Part shown: piece by piece, positions 2,150 through 41,626 of the stretch
Numbering within the stretch: the first letter of the stretch is position 1
How the letters are laid out: every line of letters starts with the position of its first letter
Source: Dyella dinghuensis
Lineage (GTDB): Bacteria; Pseudomonadota; Gammaproteobacteria; Xanthomonadales; Rhodanobacteraceae
DNA length: 64,000 nt
Assembly (NCBI RefSeq): GCF_003977615.1
Contig: NZ_RYZR01000005.1
Coordinates: forward strand, 248,001 to 312,000
Direction of reading: 5' to 3'
The notes under the pieces: generated by a model
Database searches by the model: none
What the model was told of the DNA's origin: nothing
The model's input: the letters and a program-made list of their open reading frames with translations, nothing else
Position numbers and translations under genes: made by a program

Positions 2150-2324
2150 CTCCTCTCCCCTTCGGGACGCGGGGAGGGGCCATGGATGGCCCCGCTCTGA
2201 GGAGCGAGGAAGAGGACTGAGGTGAGGGGACACGCTTGCCTCACCGGTTATAACAGCCGCGCTCCAGGTAGGCGCGAAGCAAGATTGGCCCCTCACCCCA
2301 ACCCTCTCCCCACAGGGGAGAGGG
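2150..2324. repeat. REP-like GC palindromes R1/R2 in inverted arrangement
   Basis: Downstream of clp there is a degenerate palindrome (CCTCTCCCC...GGGGAGGGG, about 2150-2178) followed at 2219-2230 by GAGGTGAGGGG. A second unit at 2289-2324 reads CCCCTCACCCCAACCCTC, then a CTCTCCCC/GGGGAGAG hairpin. The two face each other, as at 31880-32315 and 41507-41626. They may act as terminators or mRNA-stabilising hairpins; no T run follows. Confidence 0.7.
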
Positions 2325-2326
2325 AG

Positions 2327-3283
2327 TTATGACGCTGGCTTCTCGTAGATCATGTAAACGTCCGCGCGCTCGTAATGCGAGCCCGGACGGATGGCCGGCT
2401 GGAAGCGGAATCCTGCTTTTTCATACATGCCCAGCGCGGGCTTCAGCGCGCTGTTGGACTCGAGGAACAACGTGACGCCACCGCGACGGTGAAACTCGGC
2501 GATGGCTGCCTCAAGCAGACGCTTTCCCGCACCCAGGCCTCGGAACGTTTCGTCCACACCCATCTTGGTCAGCTCGAACACGCCGGGCGATTCCTGCAGC
2601 AGCGCACACGTGCCAATGATTTCGTTACCCAGCCGCGCGAAGAAAATCGCCCCGCCCGGTTCGAGGATGTAGTGCTCCGGATCGCTGAGCACCGCACGGT
2701 CGATATCCTCGATGTGGAAATAGCGTTCCAACCACGCCGCGTTCAGGCGATAGAAATGTTCGCGCCATTGGGGCGCGTAAGGCACGATTTCCAGCGGCGT
2801 GGCCAGCAGCGCGGCGTGCTCGGCCAGAATGGCTTCGGCGACGGGACGCTCCTGCAAGGCGCGCTCGCACGCCGCGATGGCCTCGAGCAACTGCGTGGCA
2901 TGCTCGCCCAACGACGCTGTGACGCCCTGCCGCACGGCGCACCAGATCGGCCCGAGTTCGCCCAACGCGTGATTGGCCTTGTCGGTGAGGGCAAGCACGG
3001 AGCGACGCCCATCCTTCGCATCGCGTCCGCGTTTCACCATGCCGGCGCGAACCAGCTTGTCGGTGAGCTGGCTGACCGCCGAATGGGTTTGGCCGATCGC
3101 CTCGGCGACTTCCGTGACCGAGCGCGGCCCCACATCCCACAGGTAACGCAAAACCGGGAGCCAGCGCGATTCGATGCGGGCGCCGCGAGCCTGATAGACC
3201 TCATCCGCTGCGCCGTAGAACTGATCGCTCAACGCCTTCAGGCGGCTGCCCAAGGCCAGTTTTCCCAAGGATGCGATGTACAT
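2327..3283 (-). CDS. MarR-family regulator fused to a GNAT acetyltransferase
   Basis: This is a two-domain protein of 318 residues from the start I prefer. Residues about 10-140 form a winged helix of the MarR type (ESRWLPVLRYLWDVGPRSVTEVAEAIGQTHSAVSQLTDKLV). Residues about 160-318 form a GNAT fold with an acetyl-CoA site near FRGLGAGKRLLEAAI. Such bifunctional HTH/GNAT proteins are common in proteobacteria and their acceptor substrates are mostly unknown. The ATG at 3283 is preferred over 3343 because a 26-base palindrome (3299-3324) lies just upstream and would otherwise be coding. The Shine-Dalgarno is weak. It is probably autoregulated through that palindrome. Confidence 0.85.
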   Translation of the reverse strand: MYIASLGKLALGSRLKALSDQFYGAADEVYQARGARIESRWLPVLRYLWDVGPRSVTEVAEAIGQTHSAVSQLTDKLVRAGMVKRGRDAKDGRRSVLALTDKANHALGELGPIWCAVRQGVTASLGEHATQLLEAIAACERALQERPVAEAILAEHAALLATPLEIVPYAPQWREHFYRLNAAWLERYFHIEDIDRAVLSDPEHYILEPGGAIFFARLGNEIIGTCALLQESPGVFELTKMGVDETFRGLGAGKRLLEAAIAEFHRRGGVTLFLESNSALKPALGMYEKAGFRFQPAIRPGSHYERADVYMIYEKPAS

Positions 3284-3298
3284 AGCCGGATCATGTGC

Positions 3299-3324
3299 GA
3301 GATACGTAAGTACTAACGTATCTC
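3299..3324. promoter_or_regulatory. Near-perfect palindrome, probable MarR autoregulatory operator
   Basis: Left half GAGATACGTAAGT and right half ACTAACGTATCTC are reverse complements except for one mismatched base pair. The site lies 16 bases upstream of the 3283 start of the MarR-GNAT gene, where an autorepressor operator is expected. Confidence 0.7.
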
Positions 3325-3361
3325 CGTCTGGCGTGGCTCGCAAGTGGCCAAATGAAGGGAA

Positions 3362-4063
3362 TCAGTACCAGGCGACGCGCGCTACCGAGCGGCCGAGTGC
3401 CTTCTCCACGCGCTTGCACAGCTTGGGCGTGCCGTTCACCAGCACGGGCTCATGCGCCTGTTTGAGCATCGCCGCATCGAGCATGGAATCGCCGTAGGCG
3501 ACACGCCACGTTTTCACGCCCTTCGCGGCAAGGCTTTGCACCTTGCGACGTCCGACGTTGTGCACTTTCACGCGCATGCCCGACCAGCCCGGCTTGATTT
3601 GCGATCCGATCACGCCGACCTCGGGCAAGCCCAGTTGCGAGAGCAAACGCGTGGCAAGCATCTGCTCACAACCCGTCACGACAAAGACTTCATCGCCATC
3701 GGCAACGTGTCGGCGCAATGCGTGCAAGCCATCGCGATAAAACTGCCGCGGGCGCCGCACGATGTGATCGGCGAACGCATCCACCGTTTCCTGATAACGC
3801 TTCTGACTCATTCCGAAAAGCGCAACATGGACCAGCACACGCGCCGCCCACCAGCGTGAGAACACACCGCAAAGCAACCACCACGGCATCGTCAGCAACG
3901 CCAGGATTTTGCTCAACAGCGATTGCTTGTAGCGATGACGCATGAACATCGCGAACGAATCGCCATGAAACAGCACGCCGTCGAAATCGAACAGCACCGT
4001 GCGTGACGCGCTCGCGTCGGCACCGGAAGACTCCGGCGCGTTTGTCATGTCCCCTGTCGCCAT
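3362..4063 (-). CDS. HAD-superfamily phosphatase (HAD-IB, phosphoserine-phosphatase-like)
   Basis: The protein of 233 residues carries haloacid-dehalogenase motif I as FDFDGVLFHGDSF near residues 25-37, motif II as VVTGCEQ and motif IV as YGDSMLDAAML. A hydrophobic stretch (LSKILALLTMPWWLLCGVF) in the cap region suggests membrane contact, as in PgpC/SerB-like family IB phosphatases. Its ATG starts two bases after the trpC stop, so it is probably translated with the trp genes. An alternative ATG at 4048 is possible. The substrate is unknown; lipid phosphates and phosphoserine are candidates by family only. Confidence 0.8.
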   Translation of the reverse strand: MATGDMTNAPESSGADASASRTVLFDFDGVLFHGDSFAMFMRHRYKQSLLSKILALLTMPWWLLCGVFSRWWAARVLVHVALFGMSQKRYQETVDAFADHIVRRPRQFYRDGLHALRRHVADGDEVFVVTGCEQMLATRLLSQLGLPEVGVIGSQIKPGWSGMRVKVHNVGRRKVQSLAAKGVKTWRVAYGDSMLDAAMLKQAHEPVLVNGTPKLCKRVEKALGRSVARVAWY

Positions 4064-30554: not shown

Positions 30555-31865
30555 TCACGCACGCTCCGGGTTGAAATGTTTTTTGATGCCTTGCCAGCAC
30601 TTGTAGTAATCGTGCTGGAGCTGTGGTGCATCCAGCGCCTGTTTGGTCGGATGAATCACCTTGCGCGTTTCGAACATGAAAGCCATCGTGCCGGTGAGAT
30701 GATCAGGCTTGCTGACATCCGCGACACTTGCTTTCTCGAAACTCGTGGCATCCGGACCATGACCGCTCATGCAGTTATGCAGGCTAGCGCCGCCCGGCGC
30801 AAATCCGCCCGCCTTCGCGTCGTAAACGCCTTCGATCAAGCCCATGAATTCGCTGGCGACATTGCGATGGAAATACGGCGGACGGAATGTGTGCTCGGCC
30901 ACCAGCCAGCGCGGCGGGAAGATCACGAAATCGACGTTTGCCGTACCGGGCGTATCGCTTGGCGAGGTGAGCACCGTGAAGATCGACGGATCGGGATGAT
31001 CCACGCTGATAGAGCCAACGGTGTTGAAGTGGGTGAGATCGTATTTGTAGGGCGCGTAGTTACCGTGCCAAGCCACCACATCCAGCGGCGAATGATCGAT
31101 GCGAGCCGTCCACAGCGAACCCTGGAATTTATTGATCAACTCGAAGTTGCCTTCGACGTCTTCATAAGCGGCATGTGGCGCGAGGAAGTCGCGCGGCAAT
31201 GCCATCGAGTTCGCGCCGATCGGACCGAGATCGGGTAAGCGCAGCAATGCACCAAAGTTTTCTGCGACGTAGCCGCGCGCTTCACCATCCAGCAATTCCA
31301 CGCGGAAGCGAACGCCACGCGGAATCACCGCGACTTCGAGCGGCTTCACTTCCAGCACACCCAACTCCGTCGCGATATGCAAACGCCCCTGCTGCGGCAC
31401 GATGAGCAACTCACCATCCGCGTCGTAAAAGAAGCGCCCTTGCATCGAGCTGTTCGCGGCATAGATATGAATGCCGCAACCGGCTTGCTCCGCCGGGCCA
31501 CCGTTGCCTGCAAGCGTCACAAGGCCGTCGACGAAATCCGTCAGATCAGACGGCATCGGCCATGGATCCCAGCGCAATTGATTGGGCGTTGGTGGCGCTT
31601 CGTCGAAGCGATTGTGAAACGTGCCGTGCGGTTTCGGTTTGAACGGCAGATGCATGGCCGCTGGCCGAATGCGGTAGAGCCAGCTACGCTGATTGCAGTG
31701 ACGCGGCGCGGTGAATGCGGTGCCCGACAACTGCTCCGCATACAACCCATGCGCCACGCGCTGCGGCGAATTCTGTCCCTTCGGCAAAATGCCGGGAATC
31801 GCCTCCGTAGCGAACTCGTTGCCAAAACCGGATTGGTAACCCTTCGATTCGATCACGCGCATCAC
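30555..31865 (-). CDS. hmgA: Homogentisate 1,2-dioxygenase
   Basis: HmgA (436 residues) opens the ring of homogentisate to maleylacetoacetate using Fe(II). The N-terminus [17 protein letters not shown] and the late motifs [29 protein letters not shown] (iron ligands) and [14 protein letters not shown] are diagnostic. Two Met codons at the start (31865, 31862) are both possible. In this locus its upstream neighbour is a DUF559 gene rather than hppD directly. Confidence 0.96.
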
Positions 31866-31871
31866 CTGGTT

Positions 31872-32273
31872 TCAGTACTCCCCTCTCCCATCGGGAGAGG
31901 GGTTGGGGGTGAGGGTGCGGTGTTCGAGAGCGCTCAATATCGCCTCAAGCACCGCATCGGTCTGTTGCAACGCCTCGTTGTCCCAGAACCGCAAAACCGC
32001 CATGCCTTGCGATACCAGATACTGCGTGCGTATTTGATCCGACTGCTCGTTGTGTTGCGAACCATCCAATTCGACTACGAGACGTTTCGCTTCACAATAG
32101 AAATCTACGACATAAGGTGGTACTGCATGCTGGCGGCGGAATTTATAGCCATTCAAGCGACTATCCCGAAGGTGGTACCAGAGCTTTTGTTCTGCTTCGG
32201 TGCTCGTTCGCCTGAGACCGCGCAATAGCTTTCGCGTCGTGGTCGGCAACGGTGGTTTGATGCTTCCTTGCAC
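31872..32273 (-). CDS. DUF559 (Vsr-like PD-(D/E)XK) nuclease-like protein inside inverted repeats
   Basis: The 133-residue product matches the DUF559 family, related to very-short-patch-repair endonucleases. It has RRTSTEAEQKLWYHLRDSRLNG then KFRRQHAVPPYVVDFYCEAKRLVVELDGSQH, giving the D...E-x-D pattern of a PD-(D/E)XK core. Translation starts at GTG 32273, with AGGG from the right inverted repeat acting as ribosome site. The last residues (LTPNPSPDGRGEY) are read from the left inverted repeat. So both gene ends are made by the repeats. The gene sits between hppD and hmgA, in their orientation. Biological role is unknown. Confidence 0.85.
   Translation of the reverse strand: MQGSIKPPLPTTTRKLLRGLRRTSTEAEQKLWYHLRDSRLNGYKFRRQHAVPPYVVDFYCEAKRLVVELDGSQHNEQSDQIRTQYLVSQGMAVLRFWDNEALQQTDAVLEAILSALEHRTLTPNPSPDGRGEY
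31880..31915. repeat. REP-like palindrome R4, left terminal inverted repeat of the DUF559 unit
   Basis: CCCCTCTCCC-AT-CGGGAGAGGGG hairpin followed by TTGGGGGTGAGGG. It is the reverse complement of R5 except for one inserted G. It lies within the last codons of the DUF559 gene. Confidence 0.9.
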
Positions 32274-32280
32274 TGCCGAA

Positions 32281-32315
32281 CCCTCACCCCAACCCCTCTC
32301 CCGATGGGAGAGGGG
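32281..32315. repeat. REP-like palindrome R5, right terminal inverted repeat of the DUF559 unit
   Basis: CCCTCACCCCAA followed by the CCCCTCTCCC-GA-TGGGAGAGGGG hairpin. It lies seven bases upstream of the DUF559 GTG and supplies its AGGG ribosome site on the minus strand. Confidence 0.9.
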
Positions 32316-32326
32316 CTTTTAAAGCG

Positions 32327-33421
32327 TTACAGCACGCCGCGCTTCATCTGGTCGCGTTCGATCGATTCGAACAACGCCTGGAAGTTGCCTTCGCCGAAAC
32401 CTTCGTTGCCTTTGCGCTGAATGATCTCGAAGAAGATCGGCCCGATGTTGTTTTGCGTGAAGATCTGCAGCAGTTTGCGCTGCTTGGTCTCCGGATCGGC
32501 GTCGATCAGGATCTTGTTCTTGGCCAGGCGCGGCACATCTTCGCCATGATTGGGGATGCGGTGTTCGATCACGTCGAAGTACGTATCCGGCGTATCGAGG
32601 AATTCGACGCCCTTCGCGCGCATCGCTTCCACCGTGTCGTAAATGTTGTCGGTGAAGCAGGCGATGTGCTGGATGCCTTCGCCGTGATACGCATCGAGAT
32701 ATTCATTGATCTGCGATTTCGGATCGCTCGATTCGTTAAGCGGTATGCGCACGATGCCATCCGGCGCCGTCATCGCCTTCGACACCAGGCCGGTCTTGGC
32801 ACCCTTGATATCGAAGTAGCGAATTTCGCGGAAATTGAACAGACGTTCGTAGTAGTCGGACCACTTCTGCATGTTGCCGAAGTAGAGGTTGTGCGTGAGG
32901 TGATCGATGAAGGTCAGACCGAAGCCTGCGGGATTCTGATCGGCACCCGGAATCGGCGCGTAATCGGCGTCATAGATGCTGCCCGCGCTGCCGTAACGAT
33001 CGATCAGGTACAGCATGCAATCGCCAATGCCCTTCACCACCGGCGCATTCACCGCTTTCGTATCCGCTTTATCGGTCAGCGCTTCGCCGCCGTTCGAGAG
33101 CACGGTCTTGAGCACTTCGCTGGCGGGCTTCTTGAAGCGAATCGCGAAACCGCACGCGCAAGGGCCGTGCTTGGCGGCGAAGTCGGCTGCAAAGGAGTTC
33201 GGTTCTTCGTTGACCAGGAAGTTCACACCACCCTGGCGGTACACAGTGATCGCGCGGCTCTTGTGTTTGAGCACCGGCGCGAAGCCCATGTTCTTGAACA
33301 GTGCATGCAATTCGCCACCGCGAGCGCCGGGTGCGGCAAACTCAACGAACTCGAAGCCATCGATACCCATCGGGTTCTCGAAGGTGGTGACTTGCATACC
33401 GAGGTTGGGTTGGGCGTTCAT
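32327..33421 (-). CDS. hppD: 4-hydroxyphenylpyruvate dioxygenase
   Basis: HppD (364 residues) converts 4-hydroxyphenylpyruvate to homogentisate with Fe(II). It has two vicinal-oxygen-chelate domains. Iron ligands lie in FIDHLTHNLYFG, GIQHIACFTDNIYDTV and the C-terminal QIFTQNNIGPIFFEIIQRKGNEGFGEGNF. AGGAGAGCGCC precedes ATG 33421; the longer ORF start is discarded because the operator 33495-33512 would then be close to coding sequence. It is the first gene of the tyrosine operon. Confidence 0.97.
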   Translation of the reverse strand: MNAQPNLGMQVTTFENPMGIDGFEFVEFAAPGARGGELHALFKNMGFAPVLKHKSRAITVYRQGGVNFLVNEEPNSFAADFAAKHGPCACGFAIRFKKPASEVLKTVLSNGGEALTDKADTKAVNAPVVKGIGDCMLYLIDRYGSAGSIYDADYAPIPGADQNPAGFGLTFIDHLTHNLYFGNMQKWSDYYERLFNFREIRYFDIKGAKTGLVSKAMTAPDGIVRIPLNESSDPKSQINEYLDAYHGEGIQHIACFTDNIYDTVEAMRAKGVEFLDTPDTYFDVIEHRIPNHGEDVPRLAKNKILIDADPETKQRKLLQIFTQNNIGPIFFEIIQRKGNEGFGEGNFQALFESIERDQMKRGVL

Positions 33422-33494
33422 GGCGCTCTCCTGGTCAATCGATGCGCGACGGCAGCCACGGCAGCGTGCCACCATCGGGATAAGGACCACGTTA

Positions 33495-33512
33495 TAGTTA
33501 CAAATGAAACTA
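33495..33512. promoter_or_regulatory. Probable MarR operator between hppD and its regulator
   Basis: TAGTTACAAATGAAACTA has 5-base arms TAGTT/AACTA and matches its reverse complement at 14 of 18 positions. It lies in the 112-base divergent gap, 73 bases upstream of hppD and 21 upstream of the marR start. Confidence 0.55.
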
Positions 33513-33533
33513 ATTGCAAGGAACAGTGCCGCA

Positions 33534-33998
33534 ATGCCCAATCCGCGTAAGCCTGCCCCGGTCGGCGCCGAACACGCCCCTCTCGAGCTGGAGCATTTCC
33601 TGCCCTACCGGCTGTCGATCCTCTCCAACACCGTCAGCCAGGCCATCGCGGACGATTACCAGCGACGTTACGACCTTAGCGTTACCGAATGGCGTGTGAT
33701 GGCGGTGCTGGCCCGATTCCACGGCCTGTCGGCGCGCGAAGTGGCCGAGCGGACGGCGATGGACAAAGTCGCAGTGAGCCGCGCACTGGCCCGGCTAGTG
33801 GAAGCCGGTCGCGTACACCGTGAAACGCACGACGGCGACAAGCGCCGCTCCGTGCTGAACCTGACCGAGGCCGGCTGGCTGATTCACGACGATGTCGCGC
33901 CAATGGCGCGCAACCGCGAACGCGAAGTGTTGGCCAAGCTCGATGCAGAAGAGCAGGAGTGGCTGACGCGCATTCTGGACAAGCTGCTGGCGCACTGA
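33534..33998 (+). CDS. MarR-family regulator of tyrosine catabolism (inferred)
   Basis: The 154-residue winged-helix protein has LSVTEWRVMAVLARFHGLSAREVAERTAMDKVAVSRALARLVEAGRVHRE and the wing GDKRRSVLNLT. ATG 33534 (AAGGA upstream) is preferred to 33504, which overlaps the palindrome. Divergent placement beside hppD suggests it represses the hppD-hmgA-FAH operon and responds to a pathway aromatic, as known for HpdA/HmgR-type systems in other bacteria. The ligand is not shown. Confidence 0.87.
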   Translation: MPNPRKPAPVGAEHAPLELEHFLPYRLSILSNTVSQAIADDYQRRYDLSVTEWRVMAVLARFHGLSAREVAERTAMDKVAVSRALARLVEAGRVHRETHDGDKRRSVLNLTEAGWLIHDDVAPMARNREREVLAKLDAEEQEWLTRILDKLLAH

Positions 33999-41506: not shown

Positions 41507-41626
41507 CCCCTCCCCCTGCTTGCAGGGGGAGGTCGGGAGGGGGTAGTTCCCCACAAAACGCAGCATTCCGCTTTGTGACGGCTACACCCCCACCCCAACC
41601 CTCCCCCGCTACACGCAGGGGAGGGA
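41507..41626. repeat. REP-like palindromes R6/R7 in the pdhB-pdhC gap
   Basis: R6 (41507-41543) has CCCCTCCCCCTG...CAGGGGGAGG followed by TCGGGAGGGGG. R7 (41586-41626) has ACCCCCACCCCAACCCTC then CCCCCG...CAGGGGAGGG. They face each other across about 40 bases. This head-to-head pair lies inside an operon and could alter mRNA processing between E1 and E2. Confidence 0.75.

What the first reader, a model, noticed from the sequence alone, without database searches (positions are those of the whole stretch)
31872..32315. DUF559 nuclease-like gene built into a pair of inverted REP-like repeats and inserted in the tyrosine operon
The unit is bounded by 36- and 35-base inverted repeats, each with its own hairpin. 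The right repeat provides the Shine-Dalgarno of the GTG start and the left repeat encodes the last residues (LTPNPSP...). The unit interrupts hppD-hmgA yet preserves gene direction. The layout is like REP-associated transposase (RAYT) genes, but with a PD-(D/E)XK protein. This suggests a REP-borne mobile or maintenance system that has not, to my knowledge, been described. It may also explain the other paired repeats in the window as gene-less derivatives.
Basis: partly seen in the sequence, partly recalled or inferred. Interest (0 to 1): 0.78.

Follow-up and report, generated by a model that had tools for sequence, protein, structure and literature searches.

The report
Nuclease gene paired with genome repeats
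A small bacterial nuclease gene of unknown function sits between inverted copies of a short hairpin repeat that is scattered through the genome; most of the related genes examined have such hairpins beside them, and in this bacterial family the type of nuclease predicts the type of repeat, so the enzyme may be the missing partner of a widespread class of repeats.

Summary
The 133-aa DUF559 (YcjD/Vsr-like PD-(D/E)XK) gene at 31872-32273(-) lies inside inverted palindromic repeats (31880-31920, 32276-32315) that supply its C-terminus and a plausible ribosome site. Of 196 testable DUF559 loci, 151 have matching inverted repeats on both sides, against 8 of 1064 control windows. Of 216 copies, 199 have a pyrimidine/purine hairpin within 300 nt, against 33 of 426 controls. 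Repeat subtype follows nuclease clade inside single genomes. The window's clade predicts the window's repeat type across genomes, 24/27 vs 17/64. Presence of a Y1-transposase gene does not predict repeats. E. coli YcjD beside fabI has similar repeats, probably 'box C'. Cutting and copying of repeats by the nuclease is inferred, not shown.

The parts
31872..32273 (-). DUF559 (YcjD/Vsr-like PD-(D/E)XK) nuclease gene, 133 aa, window (B) clade
   Evidence: D57, E68, D70, G71, R82, R95 invariant in 208 of 208 domains without a stop
31880..31920 (-). left (3') type-B repeat: hairpin plus GGGGGTGAGGGTGCGG tail pointing into the gene; encodes the protein C-terminus
32276..32315 (+). right (5') type-B repeat in inverted orientation; lies just upstream of the GTG start
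30555..31865 (-). hmgA (homogentisate 1,2-dioxygenase), downstream neighbour; 87-93% identical in 14 of the 15 other genomes of the genus searched (one had no match)
   Evidence: name from knowledge of the family
32327..33541 (-). hppD (4-hydroxyphenylpyruvate dioxygenase), upstream neighbour
   Evidence: name from knowledge of the family
2200..2324 (.). gene-less inverted type-A doublet with a degenerate left arm (start approximate); its nuclease partner is taken to be the DUF559 copy L002 at G000:C10:500814-501125
41508..41624 (.). gene-less inverted type-C doublet; its nuclease partner is taken to be the DUF559 copy L001 at G000:C8:162260-162574

Best explanation
DUF559 is a resident, mostly vertically inherited nuclease whose genetic partner is the palindromic repeat that flanks it. 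The gene stays at one place between inverted copies of its cognate repeat. Acting in trans, the nuclease recognises that repeat, most likely the hairpin and its GGGGTGAGGG-type tail, in single-stranded or cruciform DNA (for example at replication forks). It cuts there, and repair or rejoining copies and homogenises the repeat and its inverted doublets elsewhere in the genome. This is the job that RAYT (HUH) transposases are proposed to do for GTAG-type REPs, done here by an unrelated PD-(D/E)XK enzyme. Shown: the physical association, predicted hairpin folding, specific nuclease-repeat pairing, correlation of repeat number with nuclease clade, conserved residence, conserved catalytic-type residues. 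Inferred: cleavage, hairpin recognition, copying.
For: Flanking inverted repeats in 151 of 196 testable DUF559 loci vs 8 of 1064 controls; hairpin within 300 nt in 199 of 216 vs 33 of 426. In 15 genomes with several copies, arm type follows the nearest nuclease in other genomes (similarity 0.54 vs 0.449 +/- 0.023 after swapping arms within genomes, p 2e-4, 45 copies), and the two arms of a copy match each other better than any other copy's arm in the same genome in 43 of 45 (this second count is helped by arms having been chosen as the best match within a copy). DUF559-positive genomes carry the repeats: 67 of 91 vs 8 of 56 (p 8e-13; within-genus permutation p 2e-4). The window clade predicts type B, 24/27 vs 17/64 (p 3e-8; rank test p 3e-7; within genus p 2e-4), but not type A, 21/27 vs 46/64 (p 0.61). 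A different type, defined only from the flanks of two loci, reached 29 copies in one source genome (3 in the other) and 73 in a DUF559-positive genome that lacks type A, with 0-8 in the other genomes. Invariant acidic residues; PDB relatives 3hrl and the mobile-intron protein 3r3p. In Caulobacter the SOS response seen without the methylase ScmA depends on the DUF559 protein VsrA (PMC12907096, passages read).
Against: No nuclease assay was made and no movement was observed. 8 of 56 genomes without a strong DUF559 match still hold 5 or more type-A repeats, and 18 of 120 without the window clade hold 4 or more type-B repeats; recent loss or cross-use would be needed. 24 of 91 DUF559 genomes have fewer than 5 type-A repeats; only some are explained by another type. 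Outside the family the two-sided pairs are less regular (phylum sample 28 of 49). 17 of 216 copies fail the strict hairpin test (12 of these have an inverted-repeat score of 16 or more), and 4 of 8 plasmid copies scored below 16. In two relatives the gene at this site has an in-frame stop while repeats persist (G038 22, G017 13 type-B copies). A K-12 stretch with a degenerate repeat after ycjD does not fold better than shuffles (z -0.52). Thresholds (5 and 4 repeats, clade limit) were set after seeing the counts. VsrA was interpreted by its authors as mismatch repair.
Confidence: 0.62

Rival explanations
1. DUF559 is an ordinary Vsr-like mismatch-repair nuclease, and the hairpins are only its terminator and leader regulatory elements, which happen to be common in the genome.
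For: NCBIfam vsr model gives a weak local match (4.6e-5, 23.7 bits against a cut-off of 97.85); VsrA of Caulobacter is proposed to act in mismatch repair (PMC12907096, passages read); hairpins often sit at the gene ends.
Against: Does not explain why the genome-wide number of a repeat type follows the nuclease clade, nor why arm type follows the nuclease when the host genome is held constant.
Confidence: 0.17
2. The repeats are spread by another agent such as a RAYT/IS200 transposase, and DUF559 lies in a repeat-rich place by hitchhiking.
For: Y1_Tnp matches are present in 98 of 147 genomes; RAYT genes show the same flanking layout (PMC2817692, passages read).
Against: Y1 presence does not predict type-A repeats (47/98 vs 28/49, OR 0.69, p 0.38), nor within DUF559-positive (42/59 vs 25/32) or other genomes (5/39 vs 3/17). 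Windows shifted by 0.8-2 kb lack such pairs (8 of 1064). The Y1 hits were not sorted into RAYT and other kinds.
Confidence: 0.06
3. One reading: the repeat-gene-repeat unit is itself a mobile element that inserted into the tyrosine operon, and gene-less pairs are its deletion derivatives.
For: Inverted repeats at both ends; three tandem copies 501 nt apart in G029; gene-bearing and gene-less states at the same gap in the genus; 20 of 130 pairs of similar genes share neither flank.
Against: hppD-DUF559-hmgA shared by 12 loci of several genera; 107 of 130 similar pairs share both flanks; no clean empty site among 15 gaps; gene-less pairs look like a different subtype by eye.
Confidence: 0.1
4. 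DUF559 is a defence or addiction nuclease whose repeats mark self DNA or serve as its control elements.
For: Weak partial similarity to defence proteins (window protein to DpdF 5.7e-4; L002 protein to Hhe 1.8e-3); DNA-damage response without ScmA in Caulobacter (PMC12907096, passages read).
Against: Only partial, weak PADLOC matches; at tblastn E 1e-5 only 2 of 50,697 phage records and 43 of 72,556 plasmid-collection records hold a relative of the window protein; the gene is mostly stably resident.
Confidence: 0.05

Closest known systems
RAYT (REP-associated tyrosine transposase) with REP/REPIN
   Same: Gene flanked by inverted palindromic repeats; repeat type matched to enzyme; several enzyme-repeat pairs in one genome; short-spaced inverted doublets (PMC2817692 and PMC3116915, passages read). 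Mostly vertical inheritance of the gene is also a RAYT trait (recalled).
   Different: The enzyme is PD-(D/E)XK (DUF559), not HUH/Y1; the window repeats lack the GTAG head; a Y1 gene does not predict repeat number.
E. coli BoxC repeat (56 bp, 32 copies; PMC2267715, table passages read) and YcjD (DUF559)
   Same: K-12 ycjD lies between sapF and fabI with repeat-like hairpins after it; 17 and 33 dispersed repeats in two E. coli records, control 0.
   Different: Repeats mainly on one side of ycjD. That these repeats are BoxC is inferred from place and number (origin of box C next to envM/fabI is recalled); the published consensus was not compared.
Vsr / EDxHD nucleases, including the mobile-intron protein 3r3p (I-Bth0305I by recall)
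   Same: Nuclease superfamily; profile match to 3r3p E 0.0011.
   Different: Score far below the Vsr cut-off; no intron or mismatch link tested.
Untagged palindromic repeats of other bacteria (Brucella, cyanobacteria, Deinococcus named in PMC3733652; RIME and Bru-RS recalled)
   Same: Palindromes without a conserved terminal tag and without a known enzyme; hairpins or inverted repeats flank DUF559 copies in one cyanobacterial and two Deinococcus plasmids and in further proteobacteria.
   Different: Identity with the named families was not tested.

Membership tests
DUF559 (PF04480) | Profile score above the curated cut-off | tested here: met
   130.7 vs 20.6 bits
DUF559 (PF04480) | Conserved acidic PD-(D/E)XK-type residues | tested here: met
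   D57, E68, D70 in 208 of 208; E28 in 205 of 208
RAYT | HUH/Y1 transposase domain (PF01797) | tested here: not met
   Only DUF559 and MTES_1575 reported for the protein at E<=1
RAYT | Gene flanked by inverted palindromic repeats | tested here: met
   Window gene; 151 of 196 testable DUF559 loci; feature
RAYT | GTAG (GT(A/G)G) head on the repeat | tested here: not met
   No such head on the window arms, read directly from the sequence; feature
RAYT | Repeat class paired with its own enzyme | tested here: met
RAYT | Cleavage of single-stranded repeat DNA | not testable with these tools
   needs an assay; feature from PMC3733652 passage
REPIN | Inverted doublets at fixed short spacing | tested here: met
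   10 close pairs among 58 sites, all inverted (9 tail-inward, 1 the other way), 74-102 nt, next gap 1022 nt; feature
REPIN | Excision or insertion polymorphism | tested here: inconclusive
   E. coli sstT-alx gap: doublet in one strain, one hybrid hairpin lacking 75 nt in two; slippage between the palindromic stems would also do it
Vsr | TIGR00632 score above cut-off | tested here: not met
   23.7 vs 97.85 bits
Insertion sequence / transposon | Clean empty site or target-site duplication | tested here: not met
   No clean empty site among 15 gaps of the genus, read by eye; residence shared across genera
E. coli BoxC | Published consensus sequence | not tested
   Only length and copy number seen in PMC2267715

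The most novel reading that the evidence does not exclude
DUF559/YcjD nucleases are the missing trans-acting partners of a bacteria-wide class of untagged palindromic repeats, probably including E. coli box C. They form a second, independently evolved counterpart of the RAYT-REPIN system, in which a PD-(D/E)XK nuclease cuts hairpin DNA and thereby spreads, converts and maintains its cognate repeats, with up to several private enzyme-repeat pairs per genome.
Probability: 0.5. Interest if true: 0.93.

Novelty: new variant of a known kind. Interest (0 to 1): 0.87.

Why it matters
It would give a function to a large nuclease family annotated only as DUF559, with a member in E. coli K-12, and an enzyme to repeats that have had none. 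[quoted passage not shown] The pairing makes that question testable in a laboratory strain: ycjD looks dispensable in nature, since part of the E. coli genomes lack it and an efflux operon stands there in lineages described in PMC12817139 (passages read). It would also show that resident repeat-enzyme partnerships arose at least twice.

Tried and rejected
Rejected: chance; Y1/RAYT as the agent; recent insertion into the operon; phage or plasmid carriage as the main mode.

Weak or null: trees of the genus from hmgA (one row in the wrong orientation) and hmgA+hppD were too poorly resolved to order gain and loss of the gene. dN/dS over 1704 pairs was below 1 in every pair (median 0.41) but most pairs are divergent, so it shows constraint only loosely. 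E. coli presence or absence of ycjD follows lineage (PMC12817139 passages) and could not be used as independent events. A second E. coli gap (gcvP-ygfF) has different neighbours in strains without the match, so it is no clean empty site. One E. coli hit (H72) was another locus. The Neisseria gonorrhoeae genome behind L136 gave 27 matches to the E. coli repeat pattern with 7 in the control, and its DUF559 locus scored only 10 for inverted repeats. Structure prediction was accepted late and had not finished at the last look, so no fold search was made; the solved relative 3hrl stands in.

Limits of the counts: arm identity used a pattern to find the arms in 11 of the 12 loci (L100 was left out), which favours conserved arms. 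The genome-contig loci are the best 80 of 572 confirmed. The 'family' and 'phylum' loci were picked from the higher-scoring hits of evenly drawn genomes. 6 loci at contig ends were dropped. Identical domain copies were counted once. In one search near relatives were cut at 45. The type-A and type-B counts allow two mismatches. The own genus is taken as Dyella because the 2,327,151-base contig of same-genus genome G038 has the length of a Dyella lipolytica record.

Full report
WHAT IS THERE. The window encodes hppD (32327-33541 -), a 133-aa DUF559 protein (31872-32273 -) and hmgA (30555-31865 -) in one direction (gene names hppD/hmgA from knowledge of the families). The protein matches Pfam DUF559 at 2.5e-38. 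It lies inside an inverted pair of palindromic repeats of about 40 nt with a perfect 29-nt core. Each arm is a 10-bp hairpin followed by a G-rich tail (GTTGGGGTGAGGGT-like) that points into the gene. The left arm encodes the last residues, and the right arm ends just before the GTG start.

OWN GENOME. The 4.2-Mb genome has three DUF559 matches, each beside hairpin repeats of its own type (types by eye). Type A is CTCCCTCTCCCC..GGGGAGAGGGYYGGGGTGAGGGGCC (gene L002). Type B is AAGCCCCTCTCCC..GGGAGAGGGGTTGGGGTGAGGGT (window gene). Type C is CCTCCCC..GGGGAGG with a GGGGTGGGG tail (gene L001). The core pattern CCCTCACCCCAACCC with at most one mismatch occurs 58 times (reversed-pattern control 18). 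Ten neighbouring pairs lie 74-102 nt apart, all inverted, and the next gap is 1022 nt. The window itself holds a gene-less type-A doublet with a degenerate left arm, the type-B gene unit and a gene-less type-C doublet.

ASSOCIATION. DUF559 loci were collected from 147 genomes of the family (98 with a match), 299 of the phylum (108 with a match), the GTDB contig collection (80 loci kept of 572) and extra regions. The best inverted match between the 300 nt upstream and 350 nt downstream scored 16 or more in 151 of 196 testable loci: own 3/3, family 60/67, phylum 28/49, contig collection 60/77. It did so in 8 of 1064 windows shifted by 0.8-2 kb; 6 loci at contig ends were untestable. A simpler test, any pyrimidine/purine hairpin within 300 nt, is positive in 199 of 216 copies (137 on both sides) against 33 of 426 controls (4 on both sides); 12 of the 17 failing copies have an inverted-repeat score of 16 or more. 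Named hosts with a score of 16 or more include Xanthomonas, Lysobacter, Thermomonas, Dyella, Rhodanobacter, Variovorax, Legionella, Rhizobium, Bradyrhizobium, and MAGs titled Desulfobacterales, Nitrospirales and Chloroflexi; among those that did not are Neisseria gonorrhoeae (10), a second Legionella (7) and a Dadabacteria MAG (9). On plasmids, 4 of 8 copies examined scored 16 or more (Pseudanabaena 49, Sphingomonas 23, two Deinococcus 20 and 16); Synechocystis 7, Picosynechococcus 13 and two Azospirillum 10 and 12 did not.

PAIRING. In 15 genomes with two or more repeat-flanked copies (45 copies), the arm of a copy resembles the arm of its nearest protein in another genome (0.54) more than when arms are swapped among copies of the same genome (0.449, sd 0.023; 5000 swaps, p 2e-4). 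The two arms of a copy match each other better than any other copy's arm in 43 of 45; this count is helped by the way arms were chosen, as the best match within a copy. The host is constant in the swap test, so repeat subtype follows the nuclease.

COPY NUMBER. Of 91 family genomes with a strong DUF559 match (E<1e-20), 67 have five or more type-A repeats (median 25); of 56 others, 8 do (median 0); Fisher p 8e-13, within-genus permutation p 2e-4. The window's clade (27 genomes, 50-73% identity in relatives) predicts the window's repeat type: 24 of 27 have four or more, against 17 of 64 other DUF559-positive genomes (p 3e-8; rank test p 3e-7; within genus p 2e-4). It does not predict type A (21/27 vs 46/64, p 0.61). 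Cut-offs were set after seeing the counts. A third pattern, taken only from the flanks of L056 and L062, was counted in the same 147 genomes. It gave 29 copies in source genome G098 and 3 in source genome G111, 73 in G014, 8 in G114, 5 each in G024, G079 and G096, and at most 3 elsewhere. G014 and G079 hold pairs of it directly beside their DUF559 genes, and G014, with 73 copies, has no type-A repeat. Presence of a Y1 transposase match does not predict type A (47/98 vs 28/49, p 0.38), also not within strata. Exceptions exist on both sides and are listed.

RESIDENCE. The gene is not a recent guest. hppD-DUF559-hmgA is found in 12 loci including four Xanthomonas, Thermomonas, Lysobacter and Pseudoxanthomonas. 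A second clade keeps another site in 15 loci. 107 of 130 pairs of similar genes from different genomes share both flanks, 3 one, 20 neither. In 11 of the 12 hppD-hmgA loci (L100 was left out) the repeats are about 93% identical between loci while the gene's DNA is 65% identical, higher in all 55 pairs (arms were located with a pattern, which favours conserved ones). In the genus, of 15 hppD-hmgA gaps, 4 hold the gene (two with a stop codon inside), 5 hold a gene-less inverted pair, 2 a decayed hairpin, 1 a single short hairpin, 1 another repeat and 2 other sequence that looks like a small gene (classified by eye). So the gene appears to be lost now and then, and the gap often keeps repeats; the trees could not order these events.

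ESCHERICHIA COLI. K-12 ycjD, annotated DUF559, lies between sapF and fabI and is followed by degenerate and intact copies of the same kind of repeat; the one stretch folded, with a degenerate copy, is not better than shuffles (z -0.52). Two E. coli records hold 17 and 33 dispersed copies at up to 3 mismatches, control 0. BoxC is a known E. coli family of 56 bp and 32 copies (PMC2267715, passages read); I infer that these are the same. The ycjD locus is present in 3362 of 5426 genomes at 80% coverage or more; in the two strains without it that were looked at, fabI is preceded by efflux-operon genes, as described in PMC12817139 (passages read). At sstT-alx one strain carries a repeat doublet and two carry one hybrid hairpin lacking 75 nt; 7 of the 30 rows listed show the shorter form's two-piece match. 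That is REPIN-like loss or gain, but slippage between the palindromic stems would also explain it.

PROTEIN. D57, E68, D70, G71, R82 and R95 are identical in 208 of 208 domains without a stop. A solved relative exists (3hrl, 3.4e-39), and a mobile-intron protein (3r3p) matches at 0.0011. The SOS response of Caulobacter cells lacking a cytosine methylase depends on the DUF559 protein VsrA (PMC12907096, passages read), which suggests that at least one family member damages DNA in vivo.

MECHANISM. I conclude that the nuclease most likely acts on its repeat. Likely steps: the repeat extrudes as a hairpin in single-stranded or cruciform DNA; the nuclease recognises stem and tail and cuts; repair joins or copies repeats and doublets to new or related sites. 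The first step is supported by folding (z -3.9, -3.8, and -9.9 for a doublet), the second by pairing statistics only, the third by copy-number statistics only.

PRIOR ART. 14 papers of the searchable library mention DUF559; none of the listed titles or abstract openings concerns an association with dispersed palindromes. One 2025 paper notes that segments with a transposase and DUF559 are mutation and recombination hotspots in Legionella pneumophila (PMC12308824, passages read). YcjD was assigned to PD-(D/E)XK in 2005 or before (PMC1189080, passages read). Most subscription journals and all preprints were outside the library, so an earlier description cannot be excluded.

Noticed in passing
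L248 (G029:C3:275814-277118): Three nearly identical DUF559 genes in tandem with a 501-nt period, each with its repeats: local amplification of the unit.
   Followed up: partly
L265 (G342:C31): Two DUF559 genes about 5.7 kb apart, each inside about 100-nt near-perfect inverted repeats, a longer repeat class than in the window.
   Followed up: partly
L124 (Legionella anisa), about 2845-3500: DUF559 inside about 147-nt inverted repeats; in L. pneumophila DUF559 segments are reported recombination hotspots (PMC12308824).
   Followed up: no
L314 (Pseudanabaena plasmid ABRG53a): DUF559 inside about 80-nt inverted GCCCCCTAAATCCCCC..GGGGGGC repeats, like abundant cyanobacterial intergenic repeats (recalled).
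   Followed up: no
window 31872-31912 and L002: Protein tails such as LTPNPSPDGRGEY and HPNPLPKGERE are translated repeats, a possible source of false protein similarity.
   Followed up: partly
L235, L241 (same genus, hppD-hmgA gap): Two species carry unrelated sequence that looks like a small gene in the gap instead of repeats.
   Followed up: no
L317 and L312 (cyanobacterial plasmids): DUF559 copies near DUF1156 and PIN/VapC genes without clear flanking hairpins, possibly a different use of the domain.
   Followed up: no
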